Source: Ferrovibrio sp.
Lineage (GTDB): Bacteria > Pseudomonadota > Alphaproteobacteria > Ferrovibrionales > Ferrovibrionaceae
Length of the DNA: 51,223 nt
Assembly (NCBI RefSeq): GCF_025869515.1
Contig: NZ_JAOZVR010000088.1
Coordinates: 1-51,223, forward strand
Direction of reading: 5' to 3'
Part shown: positions 680-19,505 of the stretch, piece after piece
Numbering within the stretch: position 1 is the stretch's first letter
Layout of the letters: the number at the start of each line of letters is the position of its first letter
Notes under the pieces: model-generated
The model's input: the letters and a program-made list of their open reading frames with translations, nothing else
Told to the model about the DNA's origin: nothing
Database searches by the model: none
Position numbers and translations under genes: made by a program

Positions 680-684
680 CGCGC

Positions 685-999: not shown

Positions 1000-1086
1000 G
1001 GTGTCACCTTGGTTGTGGCTGACGGAGCTGACTGGGAGGTCAGCGCCGTATTCGGCCTTCAAGGCGAGGGTTTACGGGGACGGCAA

Positions 1087-1440: not shown

Positions 1441-1999
1441 GAAGATGTCCCTGAGATGGGGATTGCTGTCGGCCAGCCGTCGAAATTCCGGCGGGCGGTT
1501 CAGGGTGAGCGCAGTCTCAGGGTGTAGGCAGAAAATGGCCGTCGGCTGAGGCTGGCTCAGCTCGGTATTCGGGACTGGGAGGTGCCCAGAGCAGTGCAGA
1601 GAGGACCGTAGGTCTCCCCCAATGTTCTGCAGTATTCAGCAATCTTTCTCATAGAAGAGAACAAAACAGAAAAATAAGATTCGGTCAACTTGTTTCTCAT
1701 GGTATTTTCAGGCGAGGCATTTGCCGACGCCGACGGATGAATGGGGCATTGGAATCGCTCGTGTTTTAGACGTTGGTAACCGAACACAGCGCAGGGTGCT
1801 CTGAGTGATTCGGCGATGTTCGCGACCCCAAACGGTCACTCGCGAATTTTGAGCGGCATTGGAATGTTGAGGGCCTTGTGGCGGCCAGGGCCGTTATCCC
1901 CGGCATTCACAAGGCCAGCCTGATTCAAGAGACGCTAGTGATTGCGTTTTGGTACTCTTGGGCATCCTTAACGAGTCTATTAAAAAGCAACTTTCTGAC
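1441..1999. other. Gene-poor stretch between the minus-strand cluster and the AAA-subtilase operon
   Basis: No convincing gene is present. A minus-strand ORF (1557-1787; internal ATG at 1698) lacks a ribosome site and recognisable motifs, so I do not call it. The stretch must hold divergent promoters for both flanking operons, but I see no clear -35/-10 pair. It contains the 9-bp inverted repeat described at 1872-1916. Confidence 0.5.
1872..1916. repeat. Inverted repeat upstream of the AAA ATPase gene
   Basis: GGCCTTGTG (1872-1880) and CACAAGGCC (1908-1916) are perfect 9-bp arms separated by 27 nt that are themselves rich in GGCC. The repeat lies about 85 nt before the likely ATPase start and could be an operator or an RNA hairpin in the leader. 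No experimental support is possible here. Confidence 0.4.
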
Positions 2000-3064: not shown

Positions 3065-5513
3065 GGCCGCGGGCTTCAACCGTCGTCGACAGGCTGAAAA
3101 TTTCGGCCCTCTGTTCAATCGATTGAAAGAAGTGCTTGCGCGAGATCCAGCTGCCCTGGAACTGCGTAGAGACCCGGCTGCGTTGGCGCCAGAAACCTTA
3201 TTGGTGTTTGTCGTCAGAGAATCCGTTCAGGATTTGGCGCGCGCCATCAACCAAGTACCAGGCTTAGACTTCATTGACGTAGACGAACTTGATCCGGACG
3301 CAGACGGCCGCAAGCCCGTCGCATATATGCTCGTCCCGGATGTTGCGGCACTCCGACAAATCCTCTCCCTCTGGGACAAATGGCAGCGGAACGAGGAGCT
3401 CGGAATTGGAAATGCGCCGTGGCGCCACGTCTTTGAGACACTTCAGGATTTGCGGCGCTGGGGGCCAGATGACCGTGTTGCGGACTGGGAGCGATCTGTC
3501 CTTGAGAACATCATCGAGAATTTGGACGATGATGAACGTATTCGGGTTGAGATTGAACTGGTTTACCGGCGCAATCCGGATGTTGGCACGCAGATGGAGC
3601 AGGACCTGCGGAGAGCGATCACGGACCGCGACGGAGAAGCAGTATCATCCTTCCGTCGCGACGATATCGCTTATCATGCCATTCTCGCTGATCTGCCTGT
3701 AATTGTCGTTCAGGGAATCGTCGACCGCGAAGAGGACGGCCTCGCAGGCGAGACAGCAGTAATGCACATTCGCCCACAAAGCTTGGCATCGTCAATTCAG
3801 GTCGCTGACCAAGATGAAGTAGAGCAAATCAACGCGGCGGTTCCCGCTGGGGCGCCGATCCTTGCCGTCTTGGATGGTGTGCCTATCGCAAACCATCCGC
3901 TTCTGAATGGGCGTCTACTCGTCGAAGACCCGTTGGGCTTGGAGGAGGAAACGCAAGTAATTAACCGCACTCATGGCACGGCGATGGCATCGGCTATCGC
4001 GCTGGGGGACAGATATCGTGCGGAGCAGCCGCTTCCACGCCGAATACTGTCTGTCCCAGTATTGCGCTGGGATGGTGGTATGGAGGCCATTCCAGATGAC
4101 CGCCTTATCGTAGATGTGATTTACACAGCAGTTACTTCGCTGCGGTCTGCTGAATCTGATGGTGGCAATGTAATTATTGTCAATATTTCGCTGGGAAATC
4201 TAAGGCGGCCATTCCACGGGCAAATGTCTGGCTGGGCCCGACTGCTCGATAGGTTGGCATGGCAGTACGGCATCTTATTTGTAGTCAGCGCAGGGAATGT
4301 CACCGATAGGTTCGACGTGGCGCCATATCGGACCACGATAGAGTTAGAGGCTGACCAGCGGCATCGGCAAAACCGAATTCTGCAAGCGTTGGAAGGTTTG
4401 AAGGCGGACCGGAGAATTATCTCGCCTGCTGAGACGTTGAATGGCCTGACCGTTGGGGCGGCCAATCAGGACAATGTTCCACCGATCCATCGGCAGAGAG
4501 CGGTCGGTCTCATTGACCCGTTTCCTGAGTTTGACACCTCAAATCCAAGCAGCCGCTTGGGACCGGGGCTCAATAATTCCGTGAAACCGGATGTAATTTT
4601 TCCTGGAGGCCGCGAGCACTTGCGTCCCTTCTTAACCGGTGCCGCCGTTGCCTTGCAGCCAGTTCAAGCCACAAGGAGCTTCGGGATTAGAGTGGCATCG
4701 CCTCCTGCTGCGGGTGACTTAGCTCGCGAGGGATACACAAACGGGACCAGTGCTGCTGCAGCGCAGGCTTCCCGAACGGCACATCGCATTCATGACGCTT
4801 TGGAAGATACCTATGGTGAGGCGTTTATTCGCCTTTCGCATAGGCATCGAGCTGTTCTGCTTAAAGCACTCACTTGCCACACTGCGATATGGTCGAAAGC
4901 AACAAGAGATTTTATCGTCGGCATCGCGGGGCCCGCAGATAACAAGTTGCACATGAAGCAGAAAGACAACGTCCGGAGATATATCGGATACGGATTGGTC
5001 GATGGAGATGATGCGGTTGCGTGCGCTGCAGACAGGGCCACATTCTGGGCGTGCGGTCAAATCGGGCTTGAAAACGCCGTTACTGTCGATGTCCCTATTC
5101 CTCTGTGCATCGCGAACCTGACTCGTCCTCACGCGCTGTGCGCGACGCTGGCTTGGTTCACGCCAGTTCAGCCAGGGCGGCAATCCTATAAAGGTGTTCG
5201 ACTTAATTTATTGGAACCCAAGGAGGCTGTTTCCGGTCTTGGCGTTTCGGGATCCGGTGTTCCTCAGCCTGATCAAAATCAGATGCGCCGCGGCACATTG
5301 ATCTCTCGCCGATGGAGCGGAGATAAGGCGCCTGTTGTCATACCGAATATGGACTTCACTCTAAATATCCAGCGCGAAATTGATAACGGGGATGATTTCG
5401 AGGAAGAGGTTCCGTTCGGTCTGGCGGTGACAGTCACGATGCCGGGGGTGAACGAAATTTATGAACAGGTGCGTCAACGCCTCGGCGTTCAGCTTCGTCC
5501 GGGCGTGCGATAA
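2976..5513 (+). CDS. Subtilisin-like serine protease (peptidase S8), large, cytoplasmic
   Basis: The product has 845 residues from ATG 2976 (or 848 from 2967). The triad is in S8 order: Asp300 in AVLDGVP, His333 in NRTHGTAMA, Ser592 in NGTSAAAA, with an oxyanion Asn in VVSAGN. About 270 residues precede the catalytic domain and contain a basic start (KRRIGKGGRPPK), and about 240 follow it. The long His-Ser spacing holds insertions. There is no signal peptide, so the protease probably acts inside the cell, driven or gated by the ATPase encoded just upstream in an overlapping frame. The stop codon shares one base with the next gene's ATG (TAATG). Substrate unknown. Confidence 0.9.
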   Translation: MASDPTKPLLRLEVQPNGKRRIGKGGRPPKAAGFNRRRQAENFGPLFNRLKEVLARDPAALELRRDPAALAPETLLVFVVRESVQDLARAINQVPGLDFIDVDELDPDADGRKPVAYMLVPDVAALRQILSLWDKWQRNEELGIGNAPWRHVFETLQDLRRWGPDDRVADWERSVLENIIENLDDDERIRVEIELVYRRNPDVGTQMEQDLRRAITDRDGEAVSSFRRDDIAYHAILADLPVIVVQGIVDREEDGLAGETAVMHIRPQSLASSIQVADQDEVEQINAAVPAGAPILAVLDGVPIANHPLLNGRLLVEDPLGLEEETQVINRTHGTAMASAIALGDRYRAEQPLPRRILSVPVLRWDGGMEAIPDDRLIVDVIYTAVTSLRSAESDGGNVIIVNISLGNLRRPFHGQMSGWARLLDRLAWQYGILFVVSAGNVTDRFDVAPYRTTIELEADQRHRQNRILQALEGLKADRRIISPAETLNGLTVGAANQDNVPPIHRQRAVGLIDPFPEFDTSNPSSRLGPGLNNSVKPDVIFPGGREHLRPFLTGAAVALQPVQATRSFGIRVASPPAAGDLAREGYTNGTSAAAAQASRTAHRIHDALEDTYGEAFIRLSHRHRAVLLKALTCHTAIWSKATRDFIVGIAGPADNKLHMKQKDNVRRYIGYGLVDGDDAVACAADRATFWACGQIGLENAVTVDVPIPLCIANLTRPHALCATLAWFTPVQPGRQSYKGVRLNLLEPKEAVSGLGVSGSGVPQPDQNQMRRGTLISRRWSGDKAPVVIPNMDFTLNIQREIDNGDDFEEEVPFGLAVTVTMPGVNEIYEQVRQRLGVQLRPGVR

Positions 5514-8579: not shown

Positions 8580-9440
8580 TTACCTAAGGGAAGGTATGAA
8601 ACGGTTCGCGAGATCTAGGAGCGGGAAGACCTCTTCGCGATACCCGAGACGGTCAGCCATTTCCCGGACTTCATCCAGGTCATACCTATCAGCGTATGCT
8701 TTCAATGCACCGAACGCGATCCCATCGGAGAAGCTGGTGGCGTTCTCTTTCTTGGGGCGTAGAACCCTGTTGCGGAAGACCAGCAGGTCGCAGACCGTCC
8801 TGGCTGGGGAGGTCACCAGAACCTCATGCCCGTAAACCATATGACGATCGAAGCCGAAATGCTTTTCGGTCAGCTCCAGGTCACTGATGACCTCGTGCCA
8901 GTATCCGTCCGCTACTCCCGGAACCGACGCGTCGGGTTCTGTGGGTGGTAGCATGGCCTGCCAGTTCACAGCGATCGGCACAAACCCATCAATCGACTTT
9001 GACAGCCGCCGTCCAGCGGGAAGGGCGAGCCACAGCTCCTCTGTTTTCAGGGCGCAAATCCCGTGAAACGCGGCAGCTGTGTTGAAGCAGACGGCGAATT
9101 CGGGTCCGTGCGCTCGGATAGCCGCGATCGCGAGATGGAGCGAATCGTAGTCTCCAGGTAGGCAGTAGAGACCGTAAAGCGGACTCCAAAGGCGCCCGTC
9201 ATCCAGCATTTCTTTTATCGCAGCCCGATCGAGACCGGCATTGATGAGATCTATTGACCGAGCTGGGCCCTGTTTTTCAGCAAAGTATGCAAGAATTTGT
9301 TCAAAATGTTTTTTGTGTCGTCCCGGAGGGCGGCCAAACCGAATTTTCCGATCGTAGTTTCTTAAAGACGCCTCATCCGGCCGAGTTCGGGCTTTGTTTG
9401 CGATCGGAGAATTTGAAGTGGCGCCCAACTCGCTCGACAT
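8580..9440 (-). CDS. AbiEi-like antitoxin/transcription regulator, without visible AbiEii partner
   Basis: The product has 286 residues. After a 40-residue basic extension comes a winged-helix-like part (EQILAYFAEKQGPARSIDLI...AIKEMLDDGRLW), then YGLYCLPGDYD, VCFNTAAAFHGI and ELWLALPAGRR. This is the block pattern of AbiEi antitoxins of type IV systems (family knowledge). The C-terminal half includes SPARTVCDLLVFR, also usual. An AbiEii nucleotidyltransferase toxin normally lies next to it; neither neighbour qualifies. The first 30 codons overlap a cluster of GATCG-containing repeats, so the true start may be later than ATG 9440. Confidence 0.7.
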   Translation of the reverse strand: MSSELGATSNSPIANKARTRPDEASLRNYDRKIRFGRPPGRHKKHFEQILAYFAEKQGPARSIDLINAGLDRAAIKEMLDDGRLWSPLYGLYCLPGDYDSLHLAIAAIRAHGPEFAVCFNTAAAFHGICALKTEELWLALPAGRRLSKSIDGFVPIAVNWQAMLPPTEPDASVPGVADGYWHEVISDLELTEKHFGFDRHMVYGHEVLVTSPARTVCDLLVFRNRVLRPKKENATSFSDGIAFGALKAYADRYDLDEVREMADRLGYREEVFPLLDLANRFIPSLR

Positions 9441-9683
9441 ATTTTCGGTCCAAAAATCTTTGTTCTCCTTTGAGAATCCTTAGTGCCGTTGCAAGAGGCA
9501 AAGGATTTCTTTGTTCAGACGGCGCGGACCTCCGATCGTAACTGCAAATTCGCGATCGCAAATTCATCCGTGCGACGAAACTGCATGATCGCAAATTTGT
9601 GTTCTCAAAACTGGGCGAAGTTGACAAAGGGGTGGGGACTGCAACTTTCTACGCATCAATGCAACATCTAATTCATTTTTTTC
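9441..9683. other. Repeat-rich non-coding stretch upstream of the AbiEi-like gene
   Basis: No gene is seen in these 240 nt, which are visibly AT-richer than their surroundings. TTCTC-CTTT-GAGAA (9463-9476) is an inverted repeat just ahead of the AbiEi-like start. AATCCT (9475-9480) and AGGATT (9502-9507) flank a 21-nt segment. GATCG repeats are listed separately. This zone could hold transposon-end (TnsB) sites or regulator sites; the sequence alone does not decide. Confidence 0.45.
9532..9606. repeat. Direct repeats GATCGCAAATT and TTTGTGTTCTC
   Basis: GATCGCAAATTC (9554-9565) and GATCGCAAATTT (9587-9598) are 33 bp apart, with a related CTGCAAATTC at 9542-9551. CCGATCGTA occurs at 9532-9540 and also at 9348-9356. 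TTTGCGATCGGAGAATTTG at 9397-9415 is similar to the reverse strand of the first copies. TTTGTGTTCTC occurs at 9596-9606 and again at 9690-9700, inside the next promoter, with a shorter TTTGTTCTC at 9459-9467. The pattern suggests multiple protein-binding sites. Confidence 0.5.
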
Positions 9684-9712
9684 TTGACTTTTGTGTTCTC
9701 TTTATGTAGAGT
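9684..9712 (+). promoter_or_regulatory. Predicted promoter of the transposition locus leader
   Basis: TTGACT (9684-9689) and TAGAGT (9707-9712) are separated by 17 nt. The spacer contains a copy of the TTTGTGTTCTC repeat, a possible operator. The expected transcription start falls at about 9719, exactly on a tandem ATGATG, so the first ORF would be leaderless. This is the only good promoter between the AbiEi-like gene and tnsA. Confidence 0.5.
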
Positions 9713-9718
9713 GTTCGC

Positions 9719-9808
9719 ATGATGACCGAGAGCATTTCACACACCCTTCTCACCGCAGCTTGGACGCAGCTCCAGGCTACGGGTCATCGTATCCCCAACA
9801 TAACTTAA
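9719..9808 (+). CDS. Possible 29-residue leader ORF
   Basis: ATG ATG ACC ... TAA encodes 29 residues (MMTESISHTLLTAAWTQLQA, then TGHRIPNIT). There is no ribosome site, but the predicted promoter would start transcription at or next to the ATG, which is compatible with leaderless translation. It directly precedes the structured region and could be a leader peptide. It may equally be chance. Confidence 0.25.
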   Translation: MMTESISHTLLTAAWTQLQATGHRIPNIT

Positions 9809-9829
9809 CGGAGCTACTCCTCTACGATC

Positions 9830-10171
9830 GTGCGGGCTTGCTTTAAGCCCGCGTGCGTCGACGTGCGTTCAGTGTGCGAATGAGTAGTGCGTTAGGTCCA
9901 AAAACTTGGTCGTGAGGCAGTTTCCCGATCGACCAAGACCCGCCGGGTTCAGACGTGGAACCGGCGGACGGGAAAGCTTTGTCCAAAATTCGGACAGCGC
10001 ATTCTTGGGCGACCATCGAAGAACGAAGTTCTGTTTCAATTTCCGCAGGAAGCCGACGATGGTCGCCATGCCACGTAAATACAGAAAATCAAATTTCGAT
10101 TGGCTGTGATGCCCACCCAACATCGGGTGGGCGTCCGCCAGCCAACGAAACACTGAGGCCCAAGGAGGGCC
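9830..10171 (+). ncRNA. Predicted structured RNA leader of the Tn7-like locus
   Basis: About 340 nt without a coding frame contain a succession of exact stems. P1 9832-9839/9845-9852 (8 bp). P2 9905-9912/9930-9937 (8 bp). P3 9940-9950/9958-9967 (10 bp, one bulged G). P4 9980-9984/9992-9996. P5 10008-10018/10057-10067 (11 bp, perfect), which encloses two small hairpins 10020-10032 and 10041-10051, a branched junction. P6 10081-10107 has an internal AA/GG loop. P7 10108-10118/10125-10135 (11 bp with one GU) abuts P6 for coaxial stacking. P8 10157-10161/10167-10171 has AAGGA, the ribosome site of the next gene, in its loop. It matches no RNA I know (tmRNA, RNase P, SRP and 6S were considered). 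Independent RNA or cis-acting leader are both possible. Confidence 0.6.
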
Positions 10172-10178
10172 AACCAGT

Positions 10179-10535
10179 ATGCGAACTAGTAGCAACGCGC
10201 TCTTGAGCGTGAACGAAGAAGCTTGGCCTGTTGCCAAGCCGCGGACTGCCGGTGCTGCCGGTGGTGGCGGTGACGACATGGACCCGCCGTCCTACCCCGA
10301 CGCCCTGTTCTGGGACGTGAAGGCCGAGGTCGTCGAGCTTGACGACTACAGGCCTGGCGCCAGTGCGAAACGTCGGGCCCGGCAGAGCAAGGAAGGGTTC
10401 CGCATGGTGCTGATGTCAGGGGCGCGTACGCGCGGCCTGCGGTCACGGCACTTGGCTCGCCGTGACCTCCGGGCGATGGATCTCAGCCAAGACCCGTTCG
10501 CCCGCCGCCGTCGTAAACCCAGCAACGATAACTAA
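10179..10535 (+). CDS. Arg-rich small protein of unknown function in the Tn7-like locus
   Basis: The product has 118 residues. ATG 10179 follows AAGGAGGG (10162-10169), which lies in a small G/C hairpin, so translation may be controlled by RNA folding. The first third is low-complexity (AGAAGGGGDD), the middle acidic (DVKAEVVELDDY), and the last 55 residues carry many Arg and Lys (KRRARQ, RTRGLRSRHLARRDLR, FARRRRK), typical of nucleic-acid binding. No family was recognised. It is followed after 12 nt by the 71-aa TnsB-domain-like ORF with its own AAGGAG site, so the two form an operon. Confidence 0.55.
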   Translation: MRTSSNALLSVNEEAWPVAKPRTAGAAGGGGDDMDPPSYPDALFWDVKAEVVELDDYRPGASAKRRARQSKEGFRMVLMSGARTRGLRSRHLARRDLRAMDLSQDPFARRRRKPSNDN

Positions 10536-10547
10536 GGAGACTGCCAC

Positions 10548-10763
10548 ATGCGTACACACAGCCGTTTTCGTCGTAACGACGAGCTCACGATCGACGGTGT
10601 CGATCACACCGTCCAGGGCCGCGTGAACTGCGGGTACTTCATGGCGCTCAAGCTGCGTAAGCGGGGCTCCAGGAAGGTCCGGTACTTCCCGGAGAGCAGT
10701 ATGTGGGACATGGCACTGCAGGGCCGAGTGGTCAAGTGCCCTGCACCTGAATACGCCCACTAG
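10548..10763 (+). CDS. Stand-alone protein resembling the N-terminal domain of TnsB
   Basis: The product has 71 residues, with AAGGAG 9 nt ahead of ATG 10548. It aligns over its whole length with the first 60 residues of the TnsB encoded at 11797: RFRRNDELTIDG here against NFSRNELLEIEG there, then a hydrophobic L.L segment, a (M/L)W...L..G..(V/I) segment and a terminal (K/R)(C/V)P. This looks like a separate copy of the TnsB N-terminal domain. It could compete for TnsB partners or DNA, or act as a regulator of the tns operon; both are inference. The similarity is my reading by eye. Confidence 0.6.
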   Translation: MRTHSRFRRNDELTIDGVDHTVQGRVNCGYFMALKLRKRGSRKVRYFPESSMWDMALQGRVVKCPAPEYAH

Positions 10764-10784
10764 GTCTGGACATCTGATGGTTTG

Positions 10785-10980
10785 CCCGACGGCCGGTGTT
10801 ATCCGGCTGTCGGGTAAGCCCAACTCATCACTCCTGAAGAGGACTTCGCTTTCGAATGTGTACATATCGAATAAGCGGCAGTCCGGTCTGATGCAGTAGC
10901 ACTGCAAGGCCGGTTGCCAGAAACGGCAGCCGCCACTCAGGAGGTCCAAGGCATTACCAACATGCTGCTTATGCAGCGTG
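10785..10980 (+). ncRNA. Second structured stretch directly upstream of tnsA
   Basis: Three well-formed units occur in 200 nt. (1) 10785-10796/10803-10814 is a 12-bp stem with one GU pair and loop TGTTAT. (2) A three-way junction is closed by GCGGC 10875-10879 / GCCGC 10929-10933. It holds CCGG 10883-10886 / 10910-10913 topped by TGCAGT-AGC-ACTGCA (10892-10906), and TGCC 10915-10918 / GGCA 10925-10928. (3) 10961-10968/10973-10980 is an 8-bp stem with loop TTAT. A perfect AGGAGGT (10939-10945) lies between units 2 and 3. It may be a cis-regulatory leader of tnsA or part of the same RNA as 9830-10171. Confidence 0.5.
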
Positions 10981-11024
10981 GTCGGCAGGCTTGTGCCTTT
11001 TCACTGAGTGAGAACCCGAAGTGA
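10962..11024 (+). CDS. Possible 20-residue leader ORF before tnsA
   Basis: ATG 10962 to TGA 11022-11024 encodes MLLMQRGRQACAFSLSENPK. AGGAGGT (10939-10945) is upstream but 16 nt away, longer than usual, and the ATG is inside hairpin 10961-10980. It ends 19 nt before the preferred tnsA start, as a leader peptide would. Weak evidence. Confidence 0.2.
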   Translation: MLLMQRGRQACAFSLSENPK

Positions 11025-11043
11025 AACAGAGCCTGAGGTCACT

Positions 11044-11775
11044 ATGAGACTGCGAGCAATGGATTTGCGGGATGAAGCCCGAAACCCATCCAAACGAATG
11101 AAGCATGTGCTTCCCATGCTGAAGCGACAGTTCCCGTGCCGCCCGGAGCCATCACGTCCAATCGTGACGCGTGCTCCGCACCGGCCGGTCGGACGGTTTG
11201 TCAGCGACAAGATGCACGGACCACTTGAATGGGAGTCGTTCCTGGAATGGGACCATTTCCGAGTTCTTGAGACCGACAACTACGTGAAGGAGTACCACCC
11301 GCAACCACCGCCTATCGACTATCCGCTGGATGGTCAGACCCGCTCATACACAGCCGATGCACTGGTCCACCGGAGGGACGGCAGGCGCGTGTATGTGGAG
11401 GTCAAGTACGAGGAGGACGCCAAGCGCTTGGACAACGTGGCGAAATTCGAGGCCATCGATTCCGTATGTCGCAAACTCGGTGCCGATTTCCATGTCGCCA
11501 CCGAGAAGGAAATCCGCCGACAGCCGCGGCTCAGCAATGCGAAAGAATTGCTGCGCTACCGGCGGGTGGAATCGAAGGGGCGTCTGGAGCTCGACGTAAT
11601 GGAAGCCGTGACCACGCAGCGGCTCGTAACAGTGCGTGATTTGATGGGAGCCATCCGGCTACCAGACTCCCGGTTGGGCGAGCTCTATGCGCTCGCTCTC
11701 CGGGGGGACATCAACATCGACCTGGAGACGGCACCCCTGTCACCCGACAGCAAGGTTTTCCGTCCTTACGCCTAA
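11044..11775 (+). CDS. tnsA: TnsA-like transposon endonuclease
   Basis: The product has 243 residues. In Tn7, TnsA cuts the 5' ends of the element while TnsB joins the 3' ends, giving cut-and-paste movement (family knowledge). The restriction-enzyme-like active site is visible: Glu64 in WESFLEWD, Asp105 in YTADALV and Glu119-x-Lys121 in YVEVKYEE, with the spacing of the Tn7 enzyme. A C-terminal wing (LMGAIRLPDSRLGELYALALRGDI) matches the winged-helix part that contacts TnsC. ATG 11044 is preferred; an in-frame GTG at 11008 adds 12 residues. The gene runs 21 nt ahead of tnsB in the same operon. Confidence 0.93.
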   Translation: MRLRAMDLRDEARNPSKRMKHVLPMLKRQFPCRPEPSRPIVTRAPHRPVGRFVSDKMHGPLEWESFLEWDHFRVLETDNYVKEYHPQPPPIDYPLDGQTRSYTADALVHRRDGRRVYVEVKYEEDAKRLDNVAKFEAIDSVCRKLGADFHVATEKEIRRQPRLSNAKELLRYRRVESKGRLELDVMEAVTTQRLVTVRDLMGAIRLPDSRLGELYALALRGDINIDLETAPLSPDSKVFRPYA

Positions 11776-11796
11776 AGCCCTGGGAGGGGCTCTTGC

Positions 11797-13839
11797 ATGA
11801 CGAGTATCAACTTTTCGCGTAACGAGCTGCTCGAAATCGAAGGCGAGCAGTTCAAGGTCTTCAGCCGGACGCCACTGGGCGCGCTCAATCTTGAGCATGT
11901 CACCGGCGGATTCATGGTGACGAAGACCGATGAGGAGCTGGCCAAGCTTTGGCGCGAAGGCGACCTCATCCGCGTGCCGGACAACAAGGAGGGCACGATG
12001 TCGGACAAGGAACGTCAGGTTCTGATGGCCGACTTCTCCTCCTTGCCGGACAAGACCAAGGCGGCTGCCGAACGCAGGATGCACTATGTCCGGGCCGTGA
12101 TGCTGGCAAATCCGCTGTTCCATACCAGCGAAGCCCTGGACCCCATCATCTTCCGGGTAGCAGCGGAAATCGGCGATACAGTTGTGCCGACAGCACGCCG
12201 GGTGTCGGAATGGGTGAAGCTGTATGGGCGTAACGGTACGCCAGACCAGAGCAATATCCGCTGGCTGGCCCCCCGTTACCACCTGCGCGGCAATTCCCAG
12301 AGCCGGTTCTGCCGTGAGGTCGTCGACCTGACCTGGGACATCATCGACCGGGAGTTTCTGAGGCGGAAGCCTGAATCCGCCAAGGAAGTCCACTCGATGA
12401 TTGAGACTGCCGTCGAAAAGATGCGGGTGGACGACATCCATCCCATCTATCGGACCAAGGATGGCAAGGCTCTGCTGTATCCGAGCCTGGTTACCTTGCG
12501 CCGCTGGCTGAAGTCGATCGACAAGGAGGTCGTGACACGTACCCAGCGGGGTCCCGTCGAGGCGAAGCGTCTGCACGAACCTGTGCTGCGTGGGCCGCAG
12601 GGCGACCGTCCGCTGGGTGAGGTCGAAATCGACCACCATCTGCTCGACATCATCCTCATCGATGATGAGCGGAATATGGTGCTCGGTCGTCCATGGCTGA
12701 CACTCGGGCTCGACAGGTACACCCGTGAAATCTCGGGATACCATATCGGGTTCCATGCGCCCAGCGCGTATACGGTGGGCTTGTGCATCAAGCACATCTG
12801 TACGCCGAAGGACGGCGAGGGCGACGAGAACGGGGAGGCGAAGGCGCCCTGGCCGGTGTTTGGGGTTCCCGACACCATCATCGTCGACAACGGTGCAGAA
12901 TTCGACAGCGCCCAGTTCAATGGTGGCTGTTACGCGCTCGGCATCGATGTCGTCAGAGCGCCGGTCCGAACGCCTCAGTACAAGGGGAAGGTCGAGCGTC
13001 TGTTCGGCACGGTCGCCATGGATGTGGTCCAGAAAATCCCGGGCTATGTCCATGCGAATGTGATCAAGCGTGGCGATTACAAAGCCGAGGAGGAAGCGGT
13101 CTGCACACTTTCCGACTTCTTGGCGGCCTTCGATCTGTGGGTCCGGAAAATTTACCGGGTCCGCGAGCACCGCGGCATCGGCATGTCACCGGCTGAGAAA
13201 TGGGAGGAGGCGACCAAAAAGTATTCGGTCCGCCTTCCCTCGGATGTCAGCCAGCTGAACCTGCTGCTGACGTTGACGGCGATGCGCGCTCTGACCCGTA
13301 AGGGCATCGAGTATCGGGGTCTTGTCTACAATTCGAAGGACCCCGAGTTCCGGAAGATGATCAACCGCCCGGATAAGCCTGCGAAGGTGAATATCCGCAT
13401 CGACATCGACGACATGAGTTCGATCGTCGTCGAGGACTGGCGGGATGGCACGACCCATGTGGTGCCGTCGATCGACCCGGACTACACCAATGGCCTGCGT
13501 CTGGAAATGCACGAAATCCTGACCAACCAGGCCAAACTGAAGCGCAAGGCGCATCAGCGTGTGACGGTGCGTCAGCTCCAGCAGGCCCGCGAAGAGTTCC
13601 GCGAGTCCGTGCGTGAAATGAAGCGCAAGAAGAAACTTGCCAAGCGCCTGCTTTCGGCGATGGGCGAGGAAGCGGCCAAGTCGGGCAATCAGGGCATGCC
13701 CATTGTGCATAAGACTGAGGAGGCTCCGGTCGAGCTTCCGCTGTCCGCCAACACCGCGCCTGTGCCGCCTGCTGCGGTGAACGACGACACCGACCTTTCG
13801 GTCGTCGCGGCCAAGCTCGGCCTGAAGACGGCGGCATAA
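11797..13839 (+). CDS. tnsB: TnsB-like DDE transposase
   Basis: The product has 680 residues. RNase-H-fold catalytic triad: Asp279 (EVEIDHHLLD), Asp364 (IIVDNGAEF) and Glu400 (YKGKVERLFG), the last two 35 residues apart as in Mu/IS3/Tn7 transposases. An N-terminal domain (residues 5-60) is also encoded separately at 10548-10763. Helix-turn-helix segments follow for end binding (PTARRVSEWVKLYG). After the catalytic core come a beta barrel and a long basic coiled segment (residues 560-630: LKRKAHQRVTVRQLQQAREE...), then a TnsC-interacting tail. It catalyses strand transfer of the element's 3' ends. Confidence 0.95.
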   Translation: MTSINFSRNELLEIEGEQFKVFSRTPLGALNLEHVTGGFMVTKTDEELAKLWREGDLIRVPDNKEGTMSDKERQVLMADFSSLPDKTKAAAERRMHYVRAVMLANPLFHTSEALDPIIFRVAAEIGDTVVPTARRVSEWVKLYGRNGTPDQSNIRWLAPRYHLRGNSQSRFCREVVDLTWDIIDREFLRRKPESAKEVHSMIETAVEKMRVDDIHPIYRTKDGKALLYPSLVTLRRWLKSIDKEVVTRTQRGPVEAKRLHEPVLRGPQGDRPLGEVEIDHHLLDIILIDDERNMVLGRPWLTLGLDRYTREISGYHIGFHAPSAYTVGLCIKHICTPKDGEGDENGEAKAPWPVFGVPDTIIVDNGAEFDSAQFNGGCYALGIDVVRAPVRTPQYKGKVERLFGTVAMDVVQKIPGYVHANVIKRGDYKAEEEAVCTLSDFLAAFDLWVRKIYRVREHRGIGMSPAEKWEEATKKYSVRLPSDVSQLNLLLTLTAMRALTRKGIEYRGLVYNSKDPEFRKMINRPDKPAKVNIRIDIDDMSSIVVEDWRDGTTHVVPSIDPDYTNGLRLEMHEILTNQAKLKRKAHQRVTVRQLQQAREEFRESVREMKRKKKLAKRLLSAMGEEAAKSGNQGMPIVHKTEEAPVELPLSANTAPVPPAAVNDDTDLSVVAAKLGLKTAA

Positions 13840-13903
13840 GTTCAGCCCAGTTCAGTGCGTAGCGTGCGTACCAACCATCCCATCAACAACGAATGAGGCC
13901 TGC

Positions 13904-14974
13904 ATGAATACTCCCGTCAATGGCTCGTCGGCCAACGACAACCCCAACCCGCCGCCCCAATATGGGGCGGCGGTGCCAAGGGACGAGCGTATCGCGCGTA
14001 TCCGGCAGCTTCGGAGCGTCTACATTGACTCCGACTGGACCAACCGGATTTACGACACGCTCGACCAGCTGATGGAGCACGCCCTGTCGGGGGCGCCGGA
14101 AGGCATCTCCGAACAGACGCTGCTCGTGACCGGCCCACCAGGCGGCGGTAAATCCCGTCTGCTGAATCGGTACGCTAATCGGCATCTGCCGGTTCGCCTT
14201 CCCGATCGGACGACGCTTCCGGTGCTCAAGGTGAGTATTCCGGCAAAGGCGACGGTCAAGGGGCTGGTCGAGCACTGCCTTCGTGCGCTGGGCGCAATCG
14301 GTGGCAGGGGCACTTCGGGCAATCAGTCGGCGCTGGAATCCCGCATGCTGTATTTCATGCGGGAGCGCGGGGTGAAGCTCATCATCTTCGATGAACTTCA
14401 GCATCTGGCGCACAATTCCGGGTACCAGTCGGCGATTCCGCCGGACTACTTCAAGGCAATCCTGAACGACAATATCTGTCCCGTCGTTCTGGCAGGCAGT
14501 TCGCCGAATGCCGAGGAGTTGTTCAATTCCTGCCACGAGCTGAAGCGGCGTGCCATCGCGCAGCTGAAGTTGGGACGTCTGGACTGGAACAACCAGGAGC
14601 ACCGCGACGCCTTCCGGGCGATGCTCCAACAGTTCGAGGTGCACATTCCCCTGCACCACAAGTCGTCGCTCAGTGACGTCCGGACAGCGCTTCGCCTGTA
14701 CATGATTTCCGACGGCCTGTTCGGCAAGGCCGTGGATTTCATCATCAACGCCACGCAACGGGCGTTGGTGTCGGGCGCCCAGTATCTGCACTGGGAGGTG
14801 CTGCGGGACACGCTCGAAGGGTTCCGCGAGGACCGTCCGGACTGGTTCAACGTCTTCGATGTCCAGGATGACCAGGCCCTTAGCGGCTTTGTCGCCCAGA
14901 AGGACACGAGCCGGGTGACCCGCCTGCACCGCAAGAAGGCAAAGATTATCCTTCCTGACCAGGAGGCGGCGTGA
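13904..14974 (+). CDS. tnsC: TnsC-like AAA+ transposition regulator
   Basis: The product has 356 residues. Walker A is GPPGGGKS (Lys83), Walker B LIIFDELQ (Asp163-Glu164), sensor 1 VVLAGSS. In Tn7-like elements this ATPase assembles on target DNA chosen by TniQ/TnsD and activates TnsA and TnsB. A Pro/Asn-rich N-terminal tail and a C-terminal basic end (RLHRKKAKIILPD) flank the AAA core. The length is closer to the shorter TnsC/TniB forms than to the Tn7 protein of about 555 residues. Its stop codon overlaps the GTG start of tniQ (GTGA), so the two are co-translated. Confidence 0.93.
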   Translation: MNTPVNGSSANDNPNPPPQYGAAVPRDERIARIRQLRSVYIDSDWTNRIYDTLDQLMEHALSGAPEGISEQTLLVTGPPGGGKSRLLNRYANRHLPVRLPDRTTLPVLKVSIPAKATVKGLVEHCLRALGAIGGRGTSGNQSALESRMLYFMRERGVKLIIFDELQHLAHNSGYQSAIPPDYFKAILNDNICPVVLAGSSPNAEELFNSCHELKRRAIAQLKLGRLDWNNQEHRDAFRAMLQQFEVHIPLHHKSSLSDVRTALRLYMISDGLFGKAVDFIINATQRALVSGAQYLHWEVLRDTLEGFREDRPDWFNVFDVQDDQALSGFVAQKDTSRVTRLHRKKAKIILPDQEAA

Positions 14975-16893
14975 GTATGGGCCGCGCCATGACAGACAAT
15001 ACTGAACTGGCGCGGCTGCCTTTTCCGGCGACGCCGGTCGCGGGCGAGAGCCTTCTGGGCTTTCTCCTGCGACTGGCGGAGCGGAACAAAGTCAACGACC
15101 CCATCGCTTTCCTGGCTTACTGCAGTGGCCAGCACACGACGGTCTCAGCGCTTGCCCTGTCTGCCAGTGACATGTCGCGGCTGAACACACGATGCGGCAT
15201 CCCGGCGGGAAGCCTGGAAGCCATGGCCTACCGGCCAATCGAGAACGGCCTCATCGACTTCTTTGGCACTAGTCTGCGCTGCGAAGACCTGGCTCTTCAG
15301 AATCGACGCTTTTGTCCCGCCTGCCTTAAGGAAGGCGCGCATCATCGAGCCGTCTGGGACCTGACGATTACCACTGTCTGCATCCGGCATGGTTTGTACC
15401 TGCAGGACGCCTGCCGGTATTGCGCGCGCCCCGCTGACTGGACCTTCGGCAGCGTCGGCTTCTGCCCCTGCGGGAAGTCATATTCAACTTCCGCATCCAT
15501 TCCAGTGCCCGACCAGGAGCTGCGCGCCCTGAAGTATGTGCTCGGGCGCATCGAGGGGACGGTCAGGAATAGTAGTTCGAAAGTTTTGGATAAACTCGCA
15601 CCAGTGCATGCCATCGAGCTGATGCTCGGTCTTGGCACCGTTGCTGCAGGTCGGACCCAACGTCGCCGCCGCATCGCAAGCCTGCGCGATGGCGAAATCG
15701 GCCAAACACTGAATGGCGGGTTCAATATCTGCCTGGGCTGGCCAGACAGGTTATTCGAATGTCTTGGCCGTCTACAGGATGGTCGCCATCAAAACGGGCG
15801 CCGGTACGGGCTGGAGCTTACCTTCGGCCCGGTGGCTTTCTGGATGAAACACGCGGACACCTCCGATGAAGTCCGTGCTGTGCTCACCGATGCGATGAGC
15901 CGTCATCCCGACCTCAAATACGCCGCGTCGTTGCGCTCAGCGCGGGTTGTATCAAATGACGACGGCAGCCTGCTGACACTTGATGAGGCTCAGCAGGCGC
16001 TGCGCCGCGCGCATGGAAAGGTCCGTGACGTCCTGATGCGCCATGGCCATGTCATCCGCGATGACCAGAAGGGTGGCGGCGCACCCATCCTGGTCAATGC
16101 ACGTGCGGTGTGGCGGCTGCAGATGGATCTCTTTGACTTCGCCGATGAGAAAACGTTGCGTACAATGCTGAAATGCTCGCGCGTCGGGCTGAAGGTCTTC
16201 TTGAAAGCGGGCTGGTTAGAACCGGCTAGTGGAGCGGCGGCTGAACTTGCTGGGCGACCCGTCTGGAGCAAGAAGGCCGTGTGCGCGACGCTGGCTCAGA
16301 TGAAGGCGGAAACGGTTGGAAACCGTAGACCGCGTAAGGCGGTTCCGATGTCGAAAGCACTGAGTGACAGCCGCTTTGCCGTAGTGGACTGGAGTCCATT
16401 TGCAATGAAGCGGGAATTCCAGCACTGCAGCTGGGATGGCGCGGGTGAAGGTCTTGCAGCGCTGCTGCTGGACGAGCGGGTATTTCGGCGGGCGCGTGCG
16501 GCTGGGCCATCCACCATCCCCGAGGCCGCAGTGAAGCTCGGGGTGAAGGAGCAGGTCGGCTATCACTTGGTGAACAGGGAGATTCTTGGATGCGGCAGGG
16601 TTCCTGGACAGAATGGGCGCCGGGTTGGCGATGCCGATATCGTGGCCTTCCATGCGGCCTACGTCATTCCGCGGCAACTCGGGCTGGACGAGGGGCGTTA
16701 TCGGGGCTGGACGTCAGAGCAGTTGGTGGCGGAGGGTCTCGTGCCGGTATCGGGGCCGGGCGTGGACGGCGGGCGGCAGTTCGTGTTCCGGCGCCAGGAT
16801 GTGGAGCGCAGTTCCCTGTTTTCTGCTAATTTCGGCGGGGCCGGTGAGCAGGGTACGGTTGGCTCGCGGCGCATTCCCTCCCGATTGGCATGA
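14971..16893 (+). CDS. tniQ: TniQ/TnsD-family target-site selector, long form
   Basis: About 640 residues from GTG 14971 (GTGA overlap with tnsC); ATG 14977 or 14989 are alternatives. The N-terminal TniQ domain (PFPATPVAGESLLGFLLRLAERN) is followed by a zinc-binding set: FCPAC (Cys115, Cys118), VCIRHG, CRYC and CPCG. The C-terminal half carries helix-turn-helix-like pieces (RTMLKCSRVGLKVFLKAGWL; TIPEAAVKLGVKEQVGYHLV). This is the layout of TnsD proteins that bind a fixed chromosomal site and recruit TnsC. It overlaps orf5 by 4 nt (ATGA). The target of this protein is not known; the adjacent cytochrome b561 3' end is one candidate. Confidence 0.88.
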   Translation: MSMGRAMTDNTELARLPFPATPVAGESLLGFLLRLAERNKVNDPIAFLAYCSGQHTTVSALALSASDMSRLNTRCGIPAGSLEAMAYRPIENGLIDFFGTSLRCEDLALQNRRFCPACLKEGAHHRAVWDLTITTVCIRHGLYLQDACRYCARPADWTFGSVGFCPCGKSYSTSASIPVPDQELRALKYVLGRIEGTVRNSSSKVLDKLAPVHAIELMLGLGTVAAGRTQRRRRIASLRDGEIGQTLNGGFNICLGWPDRLFECLGRLQDGRHQNGRRYGLELTFGPVAFWMKHADTSDEVRAVLTDAMSRHPDLKYAASLRSARVVSNDDGSLLTLDEAQQALRRAHGKVRDVLMRHGHVIRDDQKGGGAPILVNARAVWRLQMDLFDFADEKTLRTMLKCSRVGLKVFLKAGWLEPASGAAAELAGRPVWSKKAVCATLAQMKAETVGNRRPRKAVPMSKALSDSRFAVVDWSPFAMKREFQHCSWDGAGEGLAALLLDERVFRRARAAGPSTIPEAAVKLGVKEQVGYHLVNREILGCGRVPGQNGRRVGDADIVAFHAAYVIPRQLGLDEGRYRGWTSEQLVAEGLVPVSGPGVDGGRQFVFRRQDVERSSLFSANFGGAGEQGTVGSRRIPSRLA

Positions 16894-18320
16894 TGGACGA
16901 TATGGCGCTTCCCGAGCACGACCAAAAGAATGTCGATGCCTTCTTCGACGCCGTGAAGGCGCTGGAGCCTGCCTTTAAGTACGACTCTTTCTCCTATATT
17001 GCTGTGAAGCACGAGGGTGCGTTCATTCTGCTGCAGGCAGCGTTGCAGCGTCATGTGGCGAAGCCTTCGCTGCCCTACACCCTGTTCTCGACCGAGCATG
17101 TCCGTGCCGGAAACTGTCTCCTCAAAGACATCGGCCTATCACCGCGACAATTCGTCGAGGCGCTGTTCGCCGGGTCGGTCAAGGTTCACGGTACCGAACT
17201 GAAATTTCCTGGCGACTATTCGAACGCGCGCTTGACTTACTTTTCGCCTTTCTGGACGCCTGCGCTCCAGGCTCAGAGTCGGGTGAATACTTTGCAGATC
17301 TCCGGCGCGCAGCAGGCGACATTTATCCGGCAGCCCATGCTGGATTGGGAGTTGCGGGCCGCTGTGACGCCCTATGACAACATCCAGGAGCTGATGAACG
17401 AATTCCAGCTCGGCACACTCCAGGCCAATGGTGTCGTCCATGTTCTTGTCATCGCGCACACCGCCGCACTGATTAATGGCGCATCGCAGGTGATTGATGA
17501 AGATGCCGATATCGGCATCCGGCTCGCTCATGGCCTCAAAAAGAAAGATGCGGCCATCGGCGTCAGGATACTGAAGCCGGGAAGCCCGATTGAGAGGATG
17601 CAGATTGCGGGCAAGGACCTGAAGTGGACGAGAGCGCCCGACTTCACTCTGGGCACTGCGCACATTCATGTTCCAAAGGCGTCGATACTGCAGTGCTTCG
17701 CCATCTACGGCGGCGACACCCAGAGCTATTACTGGGTAAGCGACCCCACCACGACACACAATACTCGGCGGACCGCCCTGCATGCCTATGACCCGCAGCT
17801 GGATAAGCTCAGGGACATCCTGATTCGTGATAGCTTTCGCGGCTCAGATGCGCGTGACTTCGAGGTCGGAATCTCCTGGCTGGTCTGGCTGCTTGGCTTC
17901 AGTGCTGCGCACCTGAGTGCAACGAAGACCAGCGATGCGCCTGATATCATCGTCACCAGTCCGAACGGCAATATTGCCGTGGTGGAATGCACGACCGGTC
18001 TGCTGAAAGCCGAAAACAAGCTCGCCAACCTTTACGATCGGGTGCAAGCGATGCGACGGTCTTTCGAAACGTCCGGCCACAGCAATATTCGCATCCTGCC
18101 GGTTATTGTAACCGCAAAGAGCAAGAACGATGTTGCAGCCGACCTGGAGCAGGCTGAGAAGCTCGGCATCCTAGTGTTTACCCGCGAGAACATCGAAAAC
18201 GCGCTGAACCGCTCATTCGTGCCGCAAAACGCAGAGCAGCTCTATGCGGAGTGGGAGCAGGCGGTCAGCATGGCGCTGTCTAAATACAATAACCAAGGCG
18301 GGCTCCCTCCGGGGAGCTGA
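16890..18320 (+). CDS. Fifth operon gene: protein with C-terminal PD-(D/E)xK-like domain
   Basis: The product has 476 residues, with ATG 16890 overlapping the tniQ stop. No family was recognised for residues 1-300. Residues 310-440 read like a restriction-endonuclease fold: EVGISWLVWLLGF, then a PDIIV strand (Asp352), a short NGN turn, VVECTTG (Glu366) and LLKAENKLANLYDRV. The usual E-x-K lysine is replaced by Thr368; Lys373 or Lys378 could substitute, or the domain may bind DNA without cutting. In Tn7 this operon position holds tnsE, to which no resemblance is visible. A targeting or accessory role is inferred only from the coupling to tniQ. Confidence 0.65.
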   Translation: MMDDMALPEHDQKNVDAFFDAVKALEPAFKYDSFSYIAVKHEGAFILLQAALQRHVAKPSLPYTLFSTEHVRAGNCLLKDIGLSPRQFVEALFAGSVKVHGTELKFPGDYSNARLTYFSPFWTPALQAQSRVNTLQISGAQQATFIRQPMLDWELRAAVTPYDNIQELMNEFQLGTLQANGVVHVLVIAHTAALINGASQVIDEDADIGIRLAHGLKKKDAAIGVRILKPGSPIERMQIAGKDLKWTRAPDFTLGTAHIHVPKASILQCFAIYGGDTQSYYWVSDPTTTHNTRRTALHAYDPQLDKLRDILIRDSFRGSDARDFEVGISWLVWLLGFSAAHLSATKTSDAPDIIVTSPNGNIAVVECTTGLLKAENKLANLYDRVQAMRRSFETSGHSNIRILPVIVTAKSKNDVAADLEQAEKLGILVFTRENIENALNRSFVPQNAEQLYAEWEQAVSMALSKYNNQGGLPPGS

Positions 18321-18341
18321 CCGCCAGTTCGGTCTGGTGTG

Positions 18342-19319
18342 TCATGCGAGCCGGGCGTGCTTCGGCGGTCGTTCCTCGTAGGCGCGCTCAATGCAGTCAG
18401 CTATCAGCGACCTGGGCGTCCAGTGGGTGAAGGCGGGCCGAATCCTGTCGATAAAGTAGACGGCCTTGGTTTCTCGATTGGCAAGCGCATGGGTTACGCC
18501 CGCTTCGAAGATTTCGGGGTCGTCTGAGAGGATGCGCAGGCCTGCGGTCAGGAAGAGGCTGAACTGCAGTTCGCTGATGTCGGTGCGTTGCTGCAGGTCT
18601 TTCGGGCCATCCAGCTGAAGCTGTTCGATGTGCCGGTGGAATGGGTCGGCGGGATTGATGCCACGGGAGACATGGGCGAAATATCCAAAACGGCTTAACA
18701 GAAACCAGAGGTCCTGCGGCTTCATGCCCCTGAGGAGCGGTGGCTCGAATTGCTCGATGCCGTTCATGGCGTTGAGCAGATAGGTCTGGCCTTCGAGAAA
18801 CACCGGGTCGACCAGTTGCTGCTGTATAGAGCTGAGGTCGATGTTGTCGCCACAGATGTTTGGCGCCTTGGTATTCCATGTCAGCAATTCCTCGGTGCCG
18901 GGAACATGGCAGACCAGGTGTGTGCGATGTTCGGGGCATATGCGCACGAAACGCATCTCGGCAGCGGTCTTGGTGAAGCCATGCTCGCGCAGGCAGGCAG
19001 GGCAGACCCGCCGCTTCCGGAGCACAATGGCTGGCTCAGCGACCCGGTCGCCGACCTCATAGGCATTTCCGAGAATAAAATGGTGTTCCTGCATCAGTTG
19101 CAGGCGGGCGGCCGGGATGCCAGAAGCGACCGAGATTCGCTCAATAGCGTCGTCGGAATAGGTTTCTTGAGCGAAATGGATGCCGAAAGTACTCGATGCC
19201 CAGCTACTGATGTTGAAGACCCCGTTCCGGGTGCCGAGACGACCTATGAAGCTGTTCAGGCTTTCGTCGTGACCGGGATTTTCGATGCGAAGGGGAAGCG
19301 GTTCTATCGGGTTGGCCAC
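18342..19319 (-). CDS. Second TniQ-family protein, short form
   Basis: The product has 325 residues from GTG 19319 (MANPIEPLPLRIENPGHDES). TniQ hallmarks are an N-terminal ESLNSFIGRL segment and a zinc knuckle, RVCPACLREHG (CxxC) and RICPEHRTHL (CxxH). There is no long DNA-binding C-terminus. Short TniQ proteins accompany a partner that supplies DNA recognition, such as Cascade in type I CRISPR-associated transposons (family knowledge). Here there is no Cas gene. It is convergent with the tnsA-orf5 operon (21 nt apart) and divergent from the HEPN-like gene. A second targeting route is the obvious hypothesis; a decaying paralogue is the alternative. Confidence 0.8.
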   Translation of the reverse strand: MANPIEPLPLRIENPGHDESLNSFIGRLGTRNGVFNISSWASSTFGIHFAQETYSDDAIERISVASGIPAARLQLMQEHHFILGNAYEVGDRVAEPAIVLRKRRVCPACLREHGFTKTAAEMRFVRICPEHRTHLVCHVPGTEELLTWNTKAPNICGDNIDLSSIQQQLVDPVFLEGQTYLLNAMNGIEQFEPPLLRGMKPQDLWFLLSRFGYFAHVSRGINPADPFHRHIEQLQLDGPKDLQQRTDISELQFSLFLTAGLRILSDDPEIFEAGVTHALANRETKAVYFIDRIRPAFTHWTPRSLIADCIERAYEERPPKHARLA

Positions 19320-19505
19320 GGGACTTTTCTTTGAATTCGGGGAGCGTTTCTTTGATTTACCGAAGGATTTTCGGGGAGGGTCGGAACGATATCAAGGATT
19401 TCAGGGTGTGGAAGGGCAAGATTTTGCAACTTTGGCGGCGGAAGTTGGGGCTCGATCCCGTGGCGCGGGCTAGGATTGGAGCTGGCGGAATCGAGGGAGG
19501 GACAG

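What the first reader, a model, noticed from the sequence alone, without database searches (positions are those of the whole stretch)
9830..10171. Highly structured ~340-nt non-coding RNA candidate leading the Tn7-like locus
At least eight perfect or near-perfect stems follow each other: 8, 8, 10, 5, 11, 4+4, 11 and 5 bp. They include an 11-bp stem closing two hairpins (10008-10067), two stems with no nucleotide between them (10107/10108), and tandem A-G mismatches in P6. This is far more than expected by chance and more than a simple attenuator. It lies behind a good promoter and ahead of a small Arg-rich protein gene whose ribosome site is inside the last hairpin. In other Tn7-like systems RNA guides the second TniQ; here no CRISPR exists, so a transposon-encoded RNA taking part in target choice or transposition control is conceivable (speculation).
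Basis: partly seen in the sequence, partly recalled or inferred. Interest (0 to 1): 0.85.

Follow-up and report, generated by a model that had tools for sequence, protein, structure and literature searches.

The report
Structured leader RNAs of a transposon
In front of the genes of a Tn7-like jumping element, two stretches are predicted to fold as elaborate RNAs, with that pairing largely kept in a related genome; they match no family in the Rfam library and likely act within the messenger RNA to limit how much transposition protein is made.

Summary
9820-10200 folds far better than shuffles (z -7.6). In the one relative with DNA in reach (G001, element 85.5% identical) the helices of 9810-10175 are spared: 13 of 242 paired positions changed against 21 of 124 unpaired (window-only fold). 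The shared fold scores z -9.5 against shuffled alignments. A second such stretch, 10764-11043, between the 71-aa gene and tnsA, was missed (z -6.5; shared fold z -8.2, other strand -3.2). Rfam has neither; no coding signature was seen. Each runs up to the ribosome site of the next gene (p118; tnsA); no plus-strand terminator was found. I read them as cis-acting control regions of the p118-p71-tns mRNA (inferred, 0.6). A guide role is unsupported: no repeat array near the operon, no cas among 27 ORFs scanned, no 9-nt complement to the one insertion flank in view, and a core 160 of 166 identical in a copy with other surroundings. Covariation cannot be judged from two copies: one two-sided change per RNA. 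Unrelated structured leaders stand before some other Tn7-like operons, not all.

The parts
9684..9712 (+). sigma-70-like promoter, TTGACT-17-TAGAGT
   Evidence: 9 of 12 matches, 0.6 expected in shuffles
9719..9808 (+). 29-codon open frame that would start about at the predicted transcription start and ends just before RNA1; possible leader peptide, weak
   Evidence: Sequence; a 28-codon frame ends at the same place in G001 and a 29-codon one stands before the structured stretch of the paralogous element L039. Against: changes by codon position 7, 11, 10, no coding signature
9810..10175 (+). RNA1: predicted structured leader RNA (7-bp stem 9813-9819/9882-9888 over two hairpins; junction 9889-10076 with four helices; double hairpin 10089-10156; ribosome-site hairpin 10157-10171)
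9905..10070 (+). RNA1 core, 160 of 166 positions identical in G001
10157..10171 (+). terminal hairpin GGCCC-AAGGA-GGGCC with the p118 ribosome site in loop and 3' arm
   Evidence: sequence
10179..10535 (+). p118, Arg-rich 118-aa protein; KRRARQ invariant in the 4 sequences aligned
   Evidence: low-confidence model, one helix 61-78, pLDDT 48
10548..10763 (+). p71, 71-aa protein predicted to resemble a domain of Tn7 TnsB
   Evidence: pLDDT 81.5; best Foldseek hit 7pik (E. coli TnsB), E 0.024, prob 1.00, TM 0.67
10764..11043 (+). RNA2: second predicted structured RNA (18-bp hairpin 10779-10820; 7-bp stem 10831-10837/10937-10943 over three arms; hairpin 10961-10980; 3' helix 10984-11040 reaching the tnsA ribosome site)
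11044..11775 (+). tnsA
   Evidence: PF08722
11797..13839 (+). tnsB (DDE transposase)
   Evidence: PF09299
13904..14974 (+). tnsC (TniB/AAA)
   Evidence: PF05621
14971..16893 (+). tniQ1
   Evidence: PF06527
16890..18320 (+). orf5, 476 aa, C-terminal motif like PD-(D/E)xK nucleases (my reading of the alignment, motif recalled)
18342..19319 (-). tniQ2
   Evidence: PF06527
20204..20335 (+). stretch 87% identical in G001, likely near the right end of the element; host DNA begins near 20384

Best explanation
The two stretches are conserved segments, predicted to fold strongly, on the coding strand in front of genes of a Tn7-like element, and they likely act in cis, as folded parts of one long mRNA that limit translation of the genes behind them. 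Shown by computation: both fold far beyond chance, most of the fold is compatible with the relative's sequence, no coding signature was seen, and no terminator was found between them and the next genes. Predicted: one transcript starts near 9719, carries RNA1 up to the p118 ribosome site, then p118 and p71, then RNA2 up to the tnsA ribosome site. Inferred: the folds hold ribosome loading low until a ligand opens or closes them. The likeliest ligand is the element's own Arg-rich p118, in an autogenous loop, so that transposase is made only sparingly.
For: z -7.6 for RNA1 and -6.5 for RNA2; these hold the two lowest of 408 plus-strand windows in 51 kb. Window-only fold, RNA1: 13 of 242 paired positions changed against 21 of 124 unpaired, P 0.003; coding control p118: 31 of 240 against 13 of 117, P 0.71. 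Shared fold against 60 shuffled alignments: RNA1 z -9.5 plus, -6.9 minus; RNA2 -8.2 plus, -3.2 minus; controls p118 -3.0 plus, -0.9 minus, p71 -1.9 plus, -3.6 minus. Non-coding: codon positions of changes in the two long frames over RNA1 are 8,9,5 and 12,11,14; in RNA2 changes fall 7,6,9 by phase and the longest stop-free stretch is 79 codons, minus strand. Place: promoter match before RNA1, no plus-strand terminator in 9440-11100, each RNA ends at the next gene's ribosome site. In loci L039, L060 and L071 the most structured window of the fetched 19-20 kb lies just before the first gene of the tns operon, and the RNA1 core model does not match there. Precedent: weakening the ISPpu9 tnp 5'-UTR structure raises translation (PMC8450116, abstract).
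Against: Ribosome-site occlusion is not special here: computed unpaired probability is 0.67 and 0.64 for the p118 site (window, G001) and 0.35 and 0.17 for tnsA, while tnsB, tnsC, tniQ1 and orf5 of the window give 0.14-0.32 and tnsB of G001 0.60. Only two homologous copies; one two-sided pair change per RNA in the shared fold, which was itself fitted to both sequences. In the window-only fold 8 pairs of RNA1 are broken in G001. For RNA2 alone the sparing of paired positions is not significant (6 of 174 against 5 of 63, P 0.35), and its shortage of broken pairs (P 0.049) is matched by the coding control p71 (P 0.053). Six of 16 loci show no structured leader. p118 binding RNA is inference. No expression data.
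Confidence: 0.6

Rival explanations
1. RNA1 (and RNA2) is cut out of the transcript and works in trans as a stable RNA, as a regulator or as part of a transposition complex with p118, p71 or TniQ.
For: Size, junction complexity and near-invariance of the core (160 of 166 identical; the element overall is 85.5%) look like an RNA that binds protein over a large surface. p118 is Arg-rich and p71 is predicted to resemble part of TnsB. Precedent: a structured RNA processed from the IS200 tnpA transcript acts on host genes (PMC12594629, abstract).
Against: No terminator found between RNA1 and p118; RNA1 and RNA2 both run into the next ribosome site; at the same place in the paralogous element the RNA1 core model finds nothing.
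Confidence: 0.22
2. Guide RNA: RNA1 or RNA2 directs TniQ2 to the target, as CRISPR RNA does in CAST elements or the bridge RNA in IS110.
For: The locus has two TniQ genes, as the two-pathway I-B1 CAST elements do (PMC11406308, passage).
Against: No repeat array in 9000-20500; no cas protein among 27 ORFs scanned with Pfam and 10 with PADLOC; no exact complement of 9 nt or more to 20336-20700 on either strand, the only insertion flank on the contig; core nearly invariant although the two copies lie in different surroundings.
Confidence: 0.05
3. Leader-peptide attenuator: ribosomes on the 29-codon frame 9719-9808 decide how RNA1 folds.
For: A frame of 28-29 codons ends shortly before the structure in window, G001 and the paralogue L039, starting near a predicted transcription start (promoters of G001 and L039 judged by eye).
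Against: Changes by codon position 7, 11, 10; no intrinsic terminator found; an open frame of this length is not rare.
Confidence: 0.08
4. The hairpins matter as DNA, as binding sites or palindromes, not as RNA.
For: RNA1 also scores on the minus strand (z -6.9); in L062 palindromic GAATTCA repeats stand in the low-z region.
Against: Plus strand is better for both, clearly so for RNA2 (-8.2 against -3.2); the one-sided changes in the shared fold pass through G-U pairs, though a shared fold admits no other kind.
Confidence: 0.05

Closest known systems
ISPpu9 tnp 5'-UTR of Pseudomonas putida (PMC8450116, abstract read)
   Same: long structured 5'-UTR before a transposase gene; structure likely includes the ribosome site
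   Different: a small IS with two sRNAs; here a Tn7-like operon with two structured, multi-branched segments; sequences not compared
IS200 5'tnpA RNA of Salmonella (PMC12594629, abstract read)
   Same: highly structured 5' end of a transposase transcript
   Different: processed and acting on host genes; processing untested here
CRISPR-associated Tn7-like transposons (PMC11406308, passages read)
   Same: tnsABC/tniQ machinery; two TniQ proteins in I-B1 elements
   Different: no repeat array or cas gene found in what was scanned; the RNA stands before p118 and tnsA, not in an array
IS110 bridge RNA (PMC11208158, title and abstract start in search listing only)
   Same: transposon-encoded structured non-coding RNA
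   Different: DDE transposase (TnsB), not an IS110 recombinase; no target-matching loop found
Autogenous ribosomal-protein leaders (recalled; PMC7247131 seen in a search listing only)
   Same: long protein-binding fold before the gene of a basic protein
   Different: no binding shown; p118 has no Pfam, PHROGs or NCBIfam match

Membership tests
any Rfam 15 family | covariance-model score above the curated threshold | tested here: not met
   0 matches in 51 kb; at E up to 10 four hits in 9500-11100 (three miRNA models, one lncRNA exon), taken as chance
structured 5' leader of a transposase mRNA | conserved structure on the coding strand between promoter and first gene | tested here: met
   by computation, two copies only
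structured 5' leader of a transposase mRNA | no transcription terminator before the gene | tested here: met
   consensus scan only
structured 5' leader of a transposase mRNA | structure restricts access to the ribosome site | tested here: inconclusive
   p118 site mostly open in its loop; tnsA site no more closed than those of other genes
structured 5' leader of a transposase mRNA | helix mutations change translation | not testable with these tools
   needs reporter fusions
CAST guide RNA | CRISPR repeat-spacer units | tested here: not met
   direct repeats of 20 nt or more in 9000-20500: two two-copy families only; rest of the window not searched for arrays
CAST guide RNA | cas effector genes | tested here: not met
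   no cas family among 27 different ORFs scanned with Pfam and 10 with PADLOC; other ORFs not scanned
CAST guide RNA | spacer complementary to the insertion site | tested here: inconclusive
   no exact complement of 9 nt or more to 20336-20700; the left junction was not seen
IS110 bridge RNA | IS110 recombinase (DEDD) | tested here: not met
   transposase is TnsA plus a TnsB with Mu-type C-terminal domain
leader-peptide attenuator | translated leader ORF | tested here: inconclusive
   frame present in three loci, but no codon-position signal
leader-peptide attenuator | alternative terminator hairpin | tested here: not met

The most novel reading that the evidence does not exclude
RNA1 and RNA2 are a transposon-encoded RNA component of a CRISPR-free Tn7-like machine: with the Arg-rich p118 and the TnsB-like p71 they form an RNP that licenses TnsB/TnsC or TniQ, so that a Tn7 relative uses an RNA without any CRISPR system.
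Probability: 0.1. Interest if true: 0.9.

Novelty: new variant of a known kind. Interest (0 to 1): 0.5.

Why it matters
Tn7-like elements must keep transposition in check, and in what I saw control in CAST elements is ascribed to transcriptional regulators of the Xre and MerR types (PMC11406308, passages; PMC9938897, title and abstract start in a search listing). Two large conserved RNA folds flanking the first two genes of such an operon, and unrelated structured stretches at the same place in a few other Tn7-like loci, would point to RNA-level control as a recurring solution. They also give a defined, testable RNA with candidate protein partners. If the RNA worked in trans, it would be an RNA component of a Tn7-like machine outside CRISPR.

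Tried and rejected
More homologues: TnsB in genome contigs gave only the G001 contig. TnsB and its 13-row alignment in viral contigs gave none, and an RNA1 core pattern there gave none. DNA 9650-10560 in 41 relatives and in 72,556 plasmid records gave only G000 and G001, beside one 23-base match in G013. TnsB in 398 phylum genomes, 385 and 357 class genomes (overlapping draws) and the 18 family/order genomes: over most of its length, 40% identity or more only in G000 (C88, C118) and G001. print no identities, so closeness there was judged from scores; a few short pieces of 42-43% identity appear. RNA models R1 and R2 over 20 loci, and R2 over 18 family genomes, found only the two known copies; other hits had 17.4 bits or less. 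Protein relatives with 59-60% TnsB (P0003, P0004) and 84% and 67% p118 (P0242, P0243) exist. A contig of 30,389 bases is listed for both P0242 and a 70% orf5 (P0122), perhaps a further such element. No DNA of these was reachable.

Rejected: coding explanation (codon positions). tRNA, terminator or repeat explanations apply in some relatives but not here: in L065/L066 the low z lies on a tRNA-like stretch and a terminator next to host genes, in L063 on a terminator hairpin, in L062 on GAATTCA repeats (my reading of the sequence, no tRNA search run there). p118 as a homologue of the paralogue's 244-aa protein, which I had noted as likely (note): BLASTP E 5.6, not supported. p71 as a homologue of the paralogue's 78-aa protein: weak, E 0.005 over 14 residues. 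orf5 as RNA-guided effector: alignment shows a nuclease-like motif, no cas match.

Counts behind the 'structured leaders elsewhere' remark: the window and 15 of the 18 loci were scanned (L058, L059 and L070, without a TnsA match, were left out, while L056 and L071 were scanned on other anchors). 10 of 16 had a 250-nt window at z -4 or lower in the 2.6 kb before the anchor (window, L038, L039, L056, L060, L062, L063, L065, L066, L071) and 6 had none (L057, L061, L064, L067, L068, L069). Four of the ten (L062, L063, L065, L066) have the trivial explanations above and L056 was not examined. One search was run only on L039, L060, L071 and L062, chosen.

Full report
What was checked. Its closest relative is the same-genus genome G001, whose contig is JAGXRD010000146.1, 'MAG: Alphaproteobacteria bacterium isolate CROMO_A_67'. 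Pfam assigns tnsA, tnsB, tnsC (TniB) and two TniQ genes behind the stretch.

The structure is more than chance. 9820-10200 folds at -168.4 kcal/mol against -125.8 +/- 5.6 for dinucleotide shuffles, z -7.6. Among 408 plus-strand windows of the whole 51 kb the two lowest z values are at 10751 (-7.9) and 10001 (-6.2). The first of these is not in the finding: a second structured stretch, RNA2, fills the gap between the 71-aa gene and tnsA (10764-11043; -134.5 kcal/mol for 10750-11045, z -6.5). I call the original stretch RNA1.

It is kept by selection, as far as two sequences can tell. G001 carries the same element, 85.5% identical over 9734-19456. With the window's own fold of 9810-10175, 13 of 242 paired and 21 of 124 unpaired positions differ (permutation P 0.003), and broken pairs are fewer than expected (8 against 13.4, P 0.015). 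The p118 gene as control shows no such effect (31 of 240 against 13 of 117; broken 22 against 19.5), the p71 gene a weak one (4 of 132 against 6 of 84, P 0.15; broken 1 against 3.4, P 0.053). For RNA2 (10764-11000) the sparing of paired positions is not significant (6 of 174 against 5 of 63, P 0.35), and broken pairs are marginally few (2 against 4.8, P 0.049), no better than the p71 control. With the fold shared by both sequences the figures are 7 of 244 against 34 of 147 (9810-10200) and 7 of 184 against 17 of 99 (10764-11045), with 6 changed pairs in each and none broken; only one of the six is two-sided in each. That fold was fitted to both sequences, so the absence of breaks is partly built in. 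Against 60 column-shuffled alignments the shared fold scores z -9.5 (RNA1) and -8.2 (RNA2) on the plus strand, -6.9 and -3.2 on the minus strand; the coding controls score -3.0 and -0.9 (p118) and -1.9 and -3.6 (p71) on plus and minus. The cores are 160 of 166 and 117 of 122 identical.

No coding signature and no known family. Changes in the open frames 9955-10206(+) and 9869-10279(-) fall 8,9,5 and 12,11,14 on codon positions 1, 2, 3, while p118 shows 12,8,24. In RNA2 changes fall 7,6,9 by phase, and the longest stop-free stretch, on the minus strand, is 79 codons. Rfam gives no match. Covariance models of the cores find only the two known copies among 20 loci; the RNA1 core model also finds only these in 18 family genomes, beside hits of 16-17 bits that I regard as chance.

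Anatomy. A promoter match at 9684-9712 would start RNA near 9719. There a 29-codon frame begins and ends at 9808. A similar frame stands before the structure in G001 and in the paralogous element L039, but its changes show no codon pattern (7,11,10), so I do not rely on it. RNA1 then has a 7-bp stem over two hairpins, a junction closed by 9889-9897/10070-10076 with four helices (among them the 11-bp stem 10008-10067), a double hairpin, and a 5-bp hairpin carrying AAGGAGG of p118. RNA2 has an 18-bp hairpin, a 7-bp stem over three arms, and a last helix (10984-11040) that takes in the region of the tnsA ribosome site. No terminator was found on the plus strand between 9440 and 11100.

The small proteins. 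p118 has three entries in a 5.8-billion-protein set, one of them the window's own protein with another start. KRRARQ is invariant in the four sequences aligned. Its model is of low confidence (pLDDT 48) with one helix, so RNA binding is inference. p71 is predicted with pLDDT 81.5 and its best match among solved structures is E. coli TnsB, 7pik (E 0.024, prob 1.00, TM 0.67; none of 709 matches reached E 0.001).

Other Tn7-like loci. In L039, a second element of the same genome with TnsB 41% identical, the segment 17640-17960 before its first gene also folds strongly (z -4.6), but the RNA1 core model finds nothing there. Across 16 loci the picture is mixed (details in Tried and rejected). In L039, L060 and L071 the lowest z of the fetched 19-20 kb, on the operon's strand, lies directly before the first gene of the tns operon, but these were picked. 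I take this as a hint that structured leaders recur, not as proof.

Target choice. Host DNA begins near 20384, right of the element. The same host genes stand without the element in G005, G002 and, on another contig (C81), in G001, so the two copies of the element appear to lie in different places. The sequence right of the G001 element has no match in the other genomes of the genus, so its site stays unknown. The RNA core does not differ accordingly, and neither RNA has an exact 9-nt complement in 20336-20700. No repeat array was found in 9000-20500 and no cas gene among the ORFs scanned. A guide role is therefore unsupported, though the left junction could not be seen.

Mechanism. The placement of both RNAs on the coding strand, each running into the next ribosome site without a terminator, favours control within the mRNA. 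ISPpu9 is a precedent for a transposase 5'-UTR fold that lowers translation (PMC8450116, abstract). IS200 is a precedent for a transposase leader that is processed and acts on other genes (PMC12594629, abstract), so the trans rival stays open. The computed access of the ribosome sites does not single these genes out; if control is translational it probably needs a bound protein or a switch. I found no description of such RNAs in Tn7-like elements with the searches, of which I read listings only. A survey of Tn7-like cargo annotated non-coding RNAs with Infernal against Rfam (PMC8649781, passage), a method that would miss these.

Noticed in passing
window 10764-11043: Second, equally structured conserved stretch between the 71-aa gene and tnsA, not in the finding; now part of the report.
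   Followed up: yes
window 10548-10763: The 71-aa protein is predicted to fold like a part of Tn7 TnsB (7pik), as if a piece of the transposase were made on its own.
   Followed up: partly
window 16890-18320: orf5 has at least 244 relatives, mostly unnamed or 'hypothetical' in the part listed, with a conserved C-terminal motif resembling PD-(D/E)xK nucleases; no match on 72,556 plasmid records.
   Followed up: partly
window 1-1572 and G000:C118:71243-72821: 80% identical stretch shared with the contig that also holds the paralogous Tn7-like element, about 36 kb from its tnsB.
   Followed up: no
window 1126-1500: Third strongly structured place on the plus strand (z -5.7 at 1251).
   Followed up: no
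window 1949-5513: AAA ATPase gene followed by a subtilase (Peptidase_S8) gene left of the tns operon, possibly cargo.
   Followed up: no
window 20204-20384: Likely right end of the element, beside a cytochrome b561 gene; relatives show the site without the element.
   Followed up: partly
L071 7700-8080: Chain of strong hairpins before a TnsA-like gene, the last with AAAAGG in its loop next to the start codon.
   Followed up: partly
window 10030 and 11022: RNA1 and RNA2 share one 9-nt complementary stretch; may be chance.
   Followed up: no
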